A stretch of DNA of 64,000 nucleotides, from NCBI GenBank assembly GCA_026401055.1, contig JAPLNP010000236.1, forward strand, positions 1 to 64,000, given 5' to 3'. The notes below the pieces were generated by a model. It saw only the letters and a list, made by a program, of their open reading frames with translations, searched no databases and was not told where the DNA came from. A program made the translations under genes and the position numbers. The DNA comes from Planctomycetia bacterium. Lineage in GTDB: Bacteria; Planctomycetota; Planctomycetia; Pirellulales; Thermoguttaceae. Every line of letters begins with the position of its first letter. Within the stretch, counting starts at the first letter, position 1. This document shows, piece by piece, positions 23,146 through 25,343 of this stretch.

Positions 23146-23262
23146 TCACGCCGCTCGCTGTGGGGGGATCCCGCTATACGGGGGAACGGTTGCGCGGTAG
23201 AATAGGGGTGTGGCAAGCGCGTGATGGGGCGACGCGGCCCGAAAAGGATGGAGGACGGCACG

Positions 23263-23493
23263 ATGTTGAAGTCGGTGCAAGGTGTCTACCGCGAAGGCAG
23301 AGTTGAACTACTCGAATCTCCACCGCAAGGAGCGGAGGGGCGAGTGATCGTGACATTCCTTGCCGAGGCCGAATCGGTCGACCTAGCCGACCGCGGCATC
23401 GACCGCGATCAGGCCGGGGATCTCCGTCGCGGATTGGCGTCCTTTGCGGAAGACTGGCAACGTCCGGAAATGGATGTGTACGATGCGTCCTAG
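23263..23493 (+). CDS. Antitoxin-like protein of a decayed MazF-type module
   Basis: 76 residues. It begins MLKSVQGVYREGRVELLES, followed by GRVIVTFLAE, DLADRGIDRDQAGDLRRGLASFAEDW and EMDVYD. This matches, from memory, small antitoxins encoded just before MazF/PemK toxins in cyanobacteria and planctomycetes; these have a beta-strand binding head and a toxin-wrapping tail with the FAEDWxxPEM block. GAGGA precedes ATG 23263. The last codons overlap the start of a 19-codon toxin remnant (23483). Whether it still binds DNA or a toxin elsewhere cannot be told. Confidence 0.65.
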   Translation: MLKSVQGVYREGRVELLESPPQGAEGRVIVTFLAEAESVDLADRGIDRDQAGDLRRGLASFAEDWQRPEMDVYDAS

Positions 23494-23542
23494 TCGCGGC
23501 GATGTGGTGCTTGTTTTGTCTTCGGATGCCCGAGCGAAGTGA
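23483..23542 (+). pseudogene. Remnant of a MazF/PemK-like toxin
   Basis: The 19-codon frame reads MRPSRGDVVLVL then SSDARAK and a stop. The first part matches the N-terminal strand of MazF-family ribonucleases (RGDVVLV). SSDAR resembles the conserved strand about 30 residues further on (VVQSDA). An internal deletion of the core, joining these two ends, would explain it. It starts inside the antitoxin gene's last codons, as an intact operon would. Confidence 0.5.
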
Positions 23543-23552
23543 GGAGCGACTC

Positions 23553-24272
23553 GTGGGAAAACGAAGCGTCGTTGGAGACCTGATCAACTTCCGCGGCTTC
23601 GTTTATGGCCCTGTCAACGAGATGGGCGTCGTCGCGTTGTTCGCCATGCTGTCCGAGGAACTAGGCTTTATCATCGAGGAAGTGCGCTCGGAATTCCCTG
23701 ACTGCATTGCGCGGCGCAAGGTTACTCGGGGTTGGGAGCGAGTGACGATCGAATTTGAGTACAAAAGCAGCAGCTTCCGGCGGCACGGTCACGACTCAAG
23801 TTCGTGCGATCTGATCGTCTGCTGGGAACATGACTGGGACGCATGTCCCGTGCCGGTTCTGGCACTCAAGGCACACCTCACGGACTCCCAGGCCAATGTA
23901 CCCGGAGGTTTGCGCCGCCCGCACGTTAATGAGCCCCTTGAAATCCGAACGGCAAGAGTCACAGCGGGAGGCATCAGGAATGGCTATATCCGCCTTGGGC
24001 TGATCGATTCCTTCTGGCCTCAAGAATGCCTCGGCGGGAACGTCAAGCCAGCTGCAAAGCACTTGATCGTCGACTTTGAAGGTATCGGACGGATCACGAC
24101 CGACATTTCCGGTAGGCACAAGACGTTTCGGTCTGCGCATGCGCACGTGAAGGAATTCATGCGTGCTCACAAGTTGAGGGCCGGGGACATCGTGGAAATA
24201 GTCCGTATTGCGAAGCACGAGTACAAGGTGCGCCCAGCAGAAGCCGCGCGAAAGAGCGATTGTCCCCGATGA
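23553..24272 (+). CDS. PD-(D/E)XK nuclease-like protein of unknown function
   Basis: 239 residues from GTG 23553, which follows GAGGAG by seven bases. The region SVVGDLINFRGFVYGPVNEMGVVALFAMLSEEL leads to FPDC, then IEFEYKSSSF and HDSSSCDLIVCWEHDW. A Pro-Asp followed by Glu-Tyr-Lys is the spacing of a PD-(D/E)XK fold, and CDLIVCWEHD is a conserved strand in proteins of this type as I remember them. The C-terminal ~90 residues form a separate domain (HLIVDFEGIGRITTDISGRHKTFRS...AGDIVEIVRI), possibly nucleic-acid binding. Base composition looks less GC-rich than gatA and gatB. Plausibly defence-related; no activity known. Confidence 0.6.
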   Translation: MGKRSVVGDLINFRGFVYGPVNEMGVVALFAMLSEELGFIIEEVRSEFPDCIARRKVTRGWERVTIEFEYKSSSFRRHGHDSSSCDLIVCWEHDWDACPVPVLALKAHLTDSQANVPGGLRRPHVNEPLEIRTARVTAGGIRNGYIRLGLIDSFWPQECLGGNVKPAAKHLIVDFEGIGRITTDISGRHKTFRSAHAHVKEFMRAHKLRAGDIVEIVRIAKHEYKVRPAEAARKSDCPR

Positions 24273-24299
24273 ACGAGAGGCGGAAGAGGGGCCCTGCTT

Positions 24300-24701
24300 A
24301 TGATTCCCAAATTCAACGAAGACGGCTACTTGCCCCCGGGACTGCACCGCGCGAGCTTGGATGAAATCGCGCGAAGGTTCGGCCAACAATCCGAACTTCG
24401 ACGCGTCCAGATGGAATCGCTGCGGTGGCTCGTCGACGCGGCCGTGCGAGCGGGCGTCAGACGCGTCGTCGTCAACGGGAGTTTCGTTACCGATGTCGTG
24501 GAGCCTGATGACGTGGATTGCGTGCTGTTGATCGAGGCAGCCTTTCCGAAGGATACGGTTGCAGAGACAGAACTGCGCATCGGCTTCCCCTTCTTGGATG
24601 TTCAACTCGCGGACGCCGATACTTTTGACAAGCTGGTTGGCCGCTTCTTTGCGACAGATCGGTACTTGAATCCAAAGGGCATGATCGAGGTAATCCTATG
24701 A
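24300..24701 (+). CDS. Nucleotidyltransferase-like protein (DUF6932-like)
   Basis: 133 residues. It starts MIPKFNEDGYLPPGLHRASLDEIARRFG, then VVVNGSFVTDVVEPDDVDCVLLI. The latter is the G-S-x(9-12)-D-x-D signature of minimal nucleotidyltransferases, and a later Asp in LDVQLADADTFDK could complete the metal triad. Overall layout resembles the DUF6932 group (recalled, not searched). The stop overlaps the start of the 69-residue coiled-coil gene as ATGA, so the two are translationally coupled. By analogy with MNT-type antitoxins and AbiE-like toxins this may be half of a two-component module, but that is inference. Confidence 0.6.
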   Translation: MIPKFNEDGYLPPGLHRASLDEIARRFGQQSELRRVQMESLRWLVDAAVRAGVRRVVVNGSFVTDVVEPDDVDCVLLIEAAFPKDTVAETELRIGFPFLDVQLADADTFDKLVGRFFATDRYLNPKGMIEVIL

Positions 24702-24907
24702 ATCTCCAAAGTGTGCGTGAACTGGAGGTCACTCGAGAGAAGTTGCAGATGCTCGAGGACCAGTATGAGGCAACTCGAACGAAACCGAGCCCGGACGAAC
24801 ATGTGCGAGAGCTGGCGCTGCTCTCGCTCAAGAAGCTGATCAATCAACTCAAAGAAGAGATTGCCCGCTTCGAGGCGCATATGGTAAAGCCGGCCCAATC
24901 TGGGTAG
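24698..24907 (+). CDS. Small coiled-coil partner of the nucleotidyltransferase-like gene
   Basis: 69 residues, almost entirely helical: VRELEVTREKLQMLEDQYEAT, then LALLSLKKLINQLKEEIARFEAHM, with Leu heptads in both halves. It has no signal peptide and no metal motif. The start overlaps the preceding stop (ATGA), implying a fixed product ratio and probably a complex. Such a small partner could be an antitoxin, a scaffold or a regulator. I do not recognise the family beyond its recurring pairing with DUF6932-like genes, which is from memory. Confidence 0.55.
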   Translation: MNLQSVRELEVTREKLQMLEDQYEATRTKPSPDEHVRELALLSLKKLINQLKEEIARFEAHMVKPAQSG

Positions 24908-24938
24908 GTCCTGCCATGAATCAACGGAGGAGCGTGCA

Positions 24939-25343
24939 CTGTCGTTACCCAACCCCTACGAATCGCCCGAGGCACCGGCAACCGTGCCTTCTGATAATGA
25001 CCAGAAGGTCCACCCGACCAGGATACGGGCGGCACTGGCGGGTATGTGGCGAGGAGCGAAACTGGGCTTTTGGACGGTCTCGATCATCTTCTGGACGATT
25101 GGGCTGGTGATACTCCTGGTTGGAGCCTTGATTCCCGCATTCCGGAGCGAAGTGATCCCAGGGACCACGGCTGTCGAAATCGCGCTCAGTCTTGGCAAGA
25201 ACCTCTTCGTGTTGTTTGTAATGATTCCGCTGGGTGGAGTTCTGTACGGTTCTCTCCCCGGTGGTTTGATCATGGGGCTCGCCGCGGCGATCCGTTGGCG
25301 GCGCCCGACAGATTTCGAGAATCCCACGACACTGGTCTTATGA
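24939..25343 (+). CDS. Small membrane protein with NPYESP leader, coupled to gatB
   Basis: About 134 residues if read from CTG 24939, which lies six bases after GGAGGAG. The N-terminus would be SLPNPYESPEAP, a leader typical of small planctomycete membrane proteins, so CTG (or another non-ATG codon) is preferred over GTG 24984. Two hydrophobic hairpins follow: FWTVSIIFWTIGLVILLVGALI and LFVLFVMIPLGGVLYGSLPGG. Its TGA overlaps the ATG of gatB (ATGA at 25340-25343), so gatB translation is probably coupled to it. Function unknown; its effect on gatB expression may matter more than its own role. Confidence 0.6.
   Translation: MSLPNPYESPEAPATVPSDNDQKVHPTRIRAALAGMWRGAKLGFWTVSIIFWTIGLVILLVGALIPAFRSEVIPGTTAVEIALSLGKNLFVLFVMIPLGGVLYGSLPGGLIMGLAAAIRWRRPTDFENPTTLVL

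What the first reader, a model, noticed from the sequence alone, without database searches (positions are those of the whole stretch)
24300..24907. Nucleotidyltransferase-like gene coupled to a small coiled-coil gene
The first protein has a GSF...DDVD metal signature like minimal nucleotidyltransferases. The second is an acid/base-rich coiled coil starting in the stop of the first (ATGA). Such tight coupling is typical of two-component toxin-antitoxin or AbiE-like systems, but this architecture is not one I can match to a characterised module.
Basis: partly seen in the sequence, partly recalled or inferred. Interest (0 to 1): 0.75.

Follow-up and report, generated by a model that had tools for sequence, protein, structure and literature searches.

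The report
Nucleotidyltransferase with bare coiled-coil antitoxin partner
This is a small two-gene cassette that probably encodes a growth-blocking nucleotide-adding enzyme and a short helical protein that holds it in check; the pair moves between bacterial genomes as a unit, its relatives sit in phages beside the lysogeny repressor, and nobody has yet shown what the enzyme modifies.

Summary
Window 24300-24701 encodes a 133-aa DUF6932 protein (E 7.6e-23) with an invariant GSF...P-D-D-V-D signature and a confident nucleotidyltransferase (NTase) fold model (pLDDT 93). At 24698-24907 a 69-aa charged helical protein starts in its stop codon (ATGA). Seventeen planctomycete copies keep the overlapping pair with no neighbour common to the set. 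All 28 above-cut-off DUF6932 places sampled in the phylum have a helical partner; no convincing orphan coil was found.

The coil is homologous to the N-terminal domain of XRE-type regulators that follow other DUF6932 genes (reversed and shuffled controls negative); this lineage lacks the DNA-binding half. The pair lies in a 2.2-kb insert between gatA and gatB, a junction flush in about 20 relatives but holding recognised toxin-antitoxin genes (HicA, DUF433-DUF5615) in others. Lambdoid phages carry a DUF6932 pair just after cI, listed by PADLOC as candidate PDC-M63.

Most likely a toxin-antitoxin-like module: NTase toxin restrained by a bare coil. Toxicity, target and polarity are untested. A published deletion of E. 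coli PDC-M63AB showed no defence against ten phages. New variant of a catalogued but uncharacterised kind.

The parts
24300..24701 (+). Minimal nucleotidyltransferase, DUF6932 family, 133 aa (probable toxin/effector)
   Evidence: Pfam PF22014 E 7.6e-23; AF2 pLDDT 93; Foldseek nearest 2rff/8xeh/1no5 MNT proteins; 17-locus alignment
24477..24518 (+). GSF...P-D-D-V-D metal-binding signature, residues G60-D73
   Evidence: G60, S61, P69, D71, D73 invariant in 37 sequences
24594..24611 (+). Strand 99-104 (LDVQLA) carrying the probable third carboxylate (D100 here; acidic at position 100 or 102 in 16 of 17 relatives)
   Evidence: alignment A1, column print-out, strand from AF2
24675..24680 (+). K126-G127 motif; G127 invariant and K126 nearly so, possible catalytic lysine (inference)
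24698..24907 (+). 69-aa charged helical (coiled-coil) protein, probable antitoxin/partner, no DNA-binding domain
   Evidence: 17 relatives; homologous to N-terminal domain of XRE-type partners
24698..24701 (+). ATGA overlap of stop and start (translational coupling inferred)
23146..25339 (.). Insert between gatA and gatB that holds the pair and three other ORFs
   Evidence: gatA and gatB flush (-19 to 138 nt) in 20 relatives; gatA/gatB Pfam

Best explanation
The pair is a mobile toxin-antitoxin-like module. The DUF6932 protein is a small Pol-beta-type nucleotidyltransferase that, when free, adds nucleotides to a cell component and stops growth; by analogy with MenT the likeliest target is the 3' end of tRNA. 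The 69-aa helical protein, probably translated in fixed ratio through the ATGA overlap, binds the enzyme and keeps it inactive. Because this coil is homologous to the N-terminal (presumably toxin-binding) domain of XRE-type partners but has no helix-turn-helix, this lineage probably neutralises without repressing its own operon. Release of the enzyme (coil loss, locus loss, or phage attack) would arrest the cell. Shown: homology, fold, invariant catalytic residues, obligate pairing, mobility, location among known TA modules. Inferred: toxicity, which protein is toxic, the target, the trigger.
For: Obligate pair: all 28 above-cut-off DUF6932 places in 392 phylum genomes are followed by, or in one case (L023) fused to, a helical-partner ORF, and all 17 close copies overlap. 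Reverse test: a coil profile finds only DUF6932-adjacent coils plus one marginal hit. Both genes vary mostly at third codon positions and co-vary (Mantel r 0.69, 0/5000 permutations). Mobile: 16 loci have no neighbour in common apart from two sporadic pairs; present in about 6% of phylum genomes. Junction evidence: gatA-gatB is flush in 20 relatives but holds HicA (7e-15), DUF433 + DUF5615 (1e-22/1e-26) or an AbiEii-like NTase in others. Coil is homologous to the N-terminal domain of XRE partners: hhalign score 44 vs 5 reversed and at most 6.9 shuffled. In L010 the DUF6932 gene precedes an HTH-peptidase like PD-Lambda-2 B (4e-93), part of a tested TA-like defence system (PMC9519451). Lambdoid phage pairs sit right after cI. 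Fold and catalytic residues.
Against: No toxicity, binding or activity has been measured. Deletion of PDC-M63AB (the longer version) from E. coli NILS69 changed nothing for ten phages (PMC12409345). The third catalytic carboxylate is not invariant. The coil lacks a DNA-binding domain, so classical autoregulation is absent. In PD-Lambda-2 it was the HTH-peptidase, not the HigB-like protein, that was toxic alone, so polarity cannot be assumed. Homology between the short coil and the phage 310-aa partner is not detectable by profile.
Confidence: 0.6

Rival explanations
1. Reversed polarity, as in HEPN-MNT or PD-Lambda-2: the NTase is the neutraliser that modifies or restrains its partner, and the partner (coil, or coil plus extra domain) is the harmful component.
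For: The nearest solved folds are MNT proteins, which are antitoxins that AMPylate HEPN toxins (PMC7641770 and PMC11586414 abstracts). In PD-Lambda-2 the HTH-peptidase was toxic.
Against: The minimal partner is a 65-80 aa helical protein with no conserved HEPN motif (RX4-6H) and no other enzymatic residues. In five loci a damaged NTase lies beside an intact partner (L015, L023, L025, L048, L059) and no opposite case was seen, which speaks against a toxic partner, though the sample is small.
Confidence: 0.12
2. Two-subunit enzyme: the coil is an adaptor or dimerisation subunit for a non-toxic NTase, for example one that modifies a small molecule such as an antibiotic.
For: AadA and AAD(9) adenylyltransferases are among the structural matches. 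Pairing and co-variation would look the same.
Against: The partner's C-terminal half differs between XRE HTH, HTH-peptidase and long unknown domains, which fits regulation better than catalysis; residence at a junction that also receives TA genes and next to phage cI is not expected of a resistance enzyme.
Confidence: 0.15
3. Dedicated phage defence (abortive infection or superinfection exclusion) in which the coil or longer partner senses infection and unleashes the NTase. This overlaps the best explanation: it is the TA module with a fixed job.
For: Rex-like position downstream of cI in lambdoid phages with different repressors; PADLOC candidate PDC-M63; PD-Lambda-2-type partner in L010.
Against: NILS69 deletion without phenotype against ten phages; no defence neighbours established at the window locus; the coil-only form has no obvious sensor.
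Confidence: 0.25
4. Ordinary housekeeping gene pair of Planctomycetota with no conflict role.
For: Recurrent, though patchy, in Planctomycetota MAGs.
Against: About 6% presence, no conserved neighbourhood, relatives on plasmids and in phages.
Confidence: 0.04

Closest known systems
DUF6932 (Pfam PF22014)
   Same: Window NTase is a member above the gathering cut-off.
   Different: Pfam gives no function; no paper in the held library mentions the family.
PADLOC candidate PDC-M63 (PDC-M63A + PDC-M63B)
   Same: M63A is DUF6932; lambdoid phage pairs L104/L105 match both models strongly; same gene order, same 4-nt overlap.
   Different: M63B is about 310 aa with a large C-terminal part; the window partner is a 69-aa coil that does not match M63B, and a sister coil matches only at 0.006. 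The window NTase matches M63A weakly (29 bits).
XRE-type (HigA-like) regulators with an N-terminal helical domain
   Same: N-terminal 70 residues homologous to the window coil and encoded in the same place after DUF6932.
   Different: Window coil lacks the helix-turn-helix.
MenAT / AbiE (DUF1814/AbiEii nucleotidyltransferase toxins)
   Same: Two-gene operon with NTase plus protein partner; DxD metal site and a lysine; translation-blocking NTase toxins exist (PMC10435456, PMC11375011).
   Different: No AbiEii Pfam match, different partner, no detectable sequence relation.
HEPN-MNT type VII toxin-antitoxin
   Same: Closest solved folds (2rff, 8xeh, 1no5); two small mobile genes.
   Different: Partner is not HEPN; no conserved RX4-6H.
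PD-Lambda-2
   Same: L010 DUF6932 precedes an HTH-M78 peptidase matching PD-Lambda-2 B at 4e-93.
   Different: In PD-Lambda-2 the first gene is HigB-like, with a third gene; the window pair has neither HTH nor peptidase.

Membership tests
DUF6932 (PF22014) | Whole-protein score above Pfam gathering cut-off | tested here: met
   81.9 bits vs 27
Pol-beta nucleotidyltransferase superfamily | G-S and DxD metal motif | tested here: met
   G60, S61, D71, D73 invariant in 37 sequences
Pol-beta nucleotidyltransferase superfamily | NTase fold | tested here: met
   AF2 pLDDT 93; best PDB match 2rff, E 3e-3, prob 1.00, TM 0.44/0.51; the list is mostly NTases. Similarity is distant.
Pol-beta nucleotidyltransferase superfamily | Third catalytic carboxylate | tested here: inconclusive
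   D100 in the window; acidic at 100 or 102 in 16 of 17 relatives, absent in L031
PADLOC PDC-M63 | Match to PDC-M63A | tested here: inconclusive
   1.7e-7, 29 bits, residues 11-80 only
PADLOC PDC-M63 | Match to PDC-M63B partner | tested here: not met
   no hit for window coil
Type II toxin-antitoxin module | Two small, overlapping, co-inherited, mobile genes | tested here: met
Type II toxin-antitoxin module | Antitoxin with DNA-binding domain for autoregulation (usual, not universal) | tested here: not met
   coil-only in all 17 close relatives; HTH present only in other lineages
Type II toxin-antitoxin module | One protein toxic alone, neutralised by binding of the other | not testable with these tools
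   needs expression experiments
HEPN-MNT (type VII) | HEPN partner with RX4-6H | tested here: not met
   no Pfam HEPN match; motif not at a conserved position
AbiE / MenAT | AbiEii/DUF1814 NTase | tested here: not met
   no Pfam AbiEii match even at E 1
AbiE / MenAT | AbiEi-type antitoxin partner | tested here: not met
   no Pfam match

The most novel reading that the evidence does not exclude
DUF6932 modules are an uncharacterised, widespread class of nucleotidyltransferase toxin with its own target, held by an N-terminal helical domain that is either carried on XRE repressors or HTH-peptidases or left bare; the planctomycete form is the reduced version in which neutralisation has been separated from transcriptional autoregulation.
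Probability: 0.45. Interest if true: 0.72.

Novelty: new variant of a known kind. Interest (0 to 1): 0.5.

Why it matters
DUF6932 pairs occur in planctomycetes, cyanobacteria and their plasmids, archaea, acidobacteria and lambdoid phages; one version lies in 96 of 5426 complete E. coli genomes. Yet the family has no assigned function and no paper in the held library. The coil-only form is the smallest complete version (about 600 bp) and so a direct way to ask which protein is toxic, what the enzyme modifies, and what the shared helical domain does without its DNA-binding half. The rex-like position in phages makes superinfection exclusion testable in laboratory E. coli.

Tried and rejected
Rejected: AbiE/MenAT membership (no AbiEii match); HEPN-MNT membership; PDC-M63 membership of the coil-only form. 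tblastn of the window NTase finds no phage and the planctomycete alignment finds no IMG/VR relative; lambdoid phage relatives came only through a distant member. Broad alignment A3 was too diverse for a collection scan. AF2 of the 310-aa phage partner was poor (pLDDT 58; N-terminal hairpin about 75-80), so no fold search was made with it. Profile comparison of the coil with the phage partner N-terminus gave no signal above the reversed control. The 256-aa upstream ORF, the 90-aa ORF and the membrane ORF were considered as parts of the module, but none was found by tblastn in any relative locus held. The viral structure library gave no match below E 0.001. A promoter scan of the insert found nothing above chance.

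Full report
Observation. The two ORFs are present as described: 24300-24701 (133 aa) and 24698-24907 (69 aa), joined by ATGA. The first matches Pfam DUF6932 at 7.6e-23. Its GSFVTDVVEPDDVD stretch carries residues that stay invariant in 37 diverse relatives: G60, S61, P69, D71, D73. AlphaFold with 24 sequences gives pLDDT 93 and pTM 0.87. Foldseek places the model nearest to the archaeal MNT protein 2rff (E 3e-3, probability 1.00, TM 0.44/0.51), then HEPN-MNT complexes, HI0073, DNA polymerases mu and beta, CCA-adding enzyme and AadA. The match is distant, but the list is almost all nucleotidyltransferases. The probable third carboxylate is D100 in the window; in 16 of 17 close relatives an acid sits at 100 or 102, two positions that face the same side of strand 99-104.

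The pair is a unit. A scan of GTDB contigs found 22 relatives, and a scan of 392 genomes of the phylum found DUF6932 above cut-off in 23 genomes. Reading each locus in the right orientation shows a helical-partner ORF starting in or shortly after the stop of the NTase in all 28 above-cut-off places (in L023 the two are fused in frame; in L005 the partner ATG lies 72 nt downstream). In the 17 close copies (56-70% identical to the window protein) the overlap is 4 nt in 14 and 10 nt in 3, both genes vary mostly at third codon positions, and their distance matrices correlate (Mantel r 0.69, none of 5000 permutations). A profile of the coil finds, in the same 392 genomes, four places beside DUF6932 and one marginal 32-residue match in an unrelated locus. 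Sixteen loci with up to 5 kb flanks share no neighbour beyond two sporadic pairs.

Partner architectures. After other DUF6932 genes the partner begins with a helical stretch and continues into an XRE helix-turn-helix (for example L003, L011, L018, L050), an HTH plus an M78 peptidase (L004, L010), or a long domain with no Pfam match (L006, L009, L051, L054). Profile comparison of the window coil family with the first 71 residues of nine HTH-type partners gives hhalign probability 96%, E 3.8e-9 over 62 columns. The control matters because coiled coils align easily: the reversed profile scores 5 and twenty column shuffles score at most 6.9, against 44 for the real one. I therefore treat the window coil as the N-terminal domain of an XRE-type partner without its DNA-binding half. 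In a tree of 50 NTases the planctomycete coil-only group plus L030 is a clade (support 0.96), sister to a group that mixes HTH and coil-only partners (0.91). This is consistent with loss of the HTH, though gain cannot be excluded. Homology between the coil and the N-terminus of the long phage partner is not shown.

Where it sits. In the window the pair lies in a 2.2-kb insert between gatA and gatB (Pfam). In 20 relatives gatA and gatB are flush or nearly so (gap -19 to 138 nt). In eight others, all of the same family, something lies between them: HicA/HicB-like genes plus an AbiEii-like NTase (L065), an AbiEii-like NTase (L085), DUF433 plus DUF5615 (L090, L091), DUF433 (L066), and other contents (L086, L089, L102). 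Pfam confirms HicA (7e-15), DUF433 (best 6e-24), DUF5615 (best 1.5e-26) and a weak AbiEii match (1e-4); the HicB-like partner scores below cut-off. DUF433-DUF5615 is, from my own knowledge, the VapBC45 type. The junction thus repeatedly receives toxin-antitoxin genes, which is circumstantial evidence for the nature of the window pair.

Phages and plasmids. A distant relative (L051) finds DUF6932 in Escherichia phage PhiR30_1 and Erwinia phage vB_EhrS_59. In both, the NTase and a 310-aa partner overlap by 4 nt and lie directly downstream of cI in the same direction. Fifteen IMG/VR contigs carry relatives of the partner (L106-L120); the 12 inspected show the same order after several different repressors. 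This suggests a lysogeny-expressed accessory gene pair in the place where lambda has rexAB (comparison from own knowledge). The phage proteins match PADLOC PDC-M63A (8e-36) and PDC-M63B (4e-42). The same DNA is in 96 of 5426 complete E. coli genomes. Cyanobacterial plasmids carry further relatives (one inspected, L061, has an overlapping next gene). One Pantoea plasmid has DUF6932 fused to a C-terminal region with an alpha/beta-hydrolase-like AHSFG motif (motif reading only, no Pfam match).

What is known. No paper in the held library mentions DUF6932. PDC-M63AB was deleted from E. coli NILS69 and no change was seen with ten phages (PMC12409345). In L010 the partner matches PD-Lambda-2 B at 4e-93; in PD-Lambda-2 the HTH-peptidase was toxic alone and rescued by the HigB-like first protein (PMC9519451), a warning that polarity cannot be read from gene order. 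MenT toxins, which add nucleotides to tRNA 3' ends, show that small NTases can be toxins of two-gene systems (PMC10435456, PMC11541572), and MNT proteins show that they can be antitoxins (PMC7641770, PMC11586414).

Mechanism. The best-supported reading is a toxin-antitoxin-like module in which the NTase is the harmful enzyme and the coil its direct inhibitor. In the minimal form the NTase is the only protein with enzymatic residues; the coil has no conserved HEPN motif. In five loci the NTase is damaged while the partner remains open (L015 truncated, L023 fused after loss of its C-terminal part, L025 frameshifted, L048 with a TAG codon, L059 lacking its core) and no opposite case was seen, but five cases are too few to be decisive and some may be assembly errors. 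Toxicity, binding, target and trigger are inferred, not shown. I put 0.6 on the TA-like reading; a dedicated defence role overlaps it.

Verdict. The module is not unmatched: it is DUF6932, and its phage form is PADLOC PDC-M63. The coil-only architecture is a reduced variant that I have not found described. Interest 0.5.

Noticed in passing
window 23146-25339; L065, L066, L085, L090, L091: The gatA-gatB junction in this planctomycete family is a recurrent insertion site for toxin-antitoxin genes (HicA, DUF433-DUF5615, AbiEii-like NTases), although it is flush in most relatives.
   Followed up: partly
window 23502-24272: 256-aa ORF 27 nt upstream of the NTase, no Pfam match; EFEYKSSSFRRHGHD...CDLIVCWEHDW looks like a PD-(D/E)XK-type nuclease core (reading by eye). 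Weak relative on Bradyrhizobium plasmids.
   Followed up: partly
window 23221-23493: 90-aa ORF (true start probably inside) that resembles small antitoxins of PIN or MazF toxins from memory (KSVQGVYREGRVELLESPP...DWQRPEMDVYDAS), with no toxin beside it and no Pfam match.
   Followed up: partly
window 24984-25343: 119-aa membrane ORF ending next to gatB; a short similar stretch (MWRGAKxGF) lies in the gatA-gatB gap of L089, so it may be an old resident of the junction.
   Followed up: no
L104 3025-4379, L105 3091-4379, L106-L120: DUF6932 pair directly downstream of cI in lambdoid phages with different repressor types, a rex-like position.
   Followed up: yes
L060 1-1200 (Pantoea agglomerans plasmid NZ_CP126684.1): DUF6932 fused in one 399-aa ORF to a C-terminal region with an alpha/beta-hydrolase-like AHSFG motif instead of a coil partner.
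   Followed up: partly
L015, L023, L025, L048, L059: Damaged NTase genes beside intact partner ORFs; no locus with the opposite damage was seen.
   Followed up: partly
G000 C486 19767-20174 (L002/L032): The same genome holds a second, diverged DUF6932 gene with its own overlapping coil-like ORF.
   Followed up: partly
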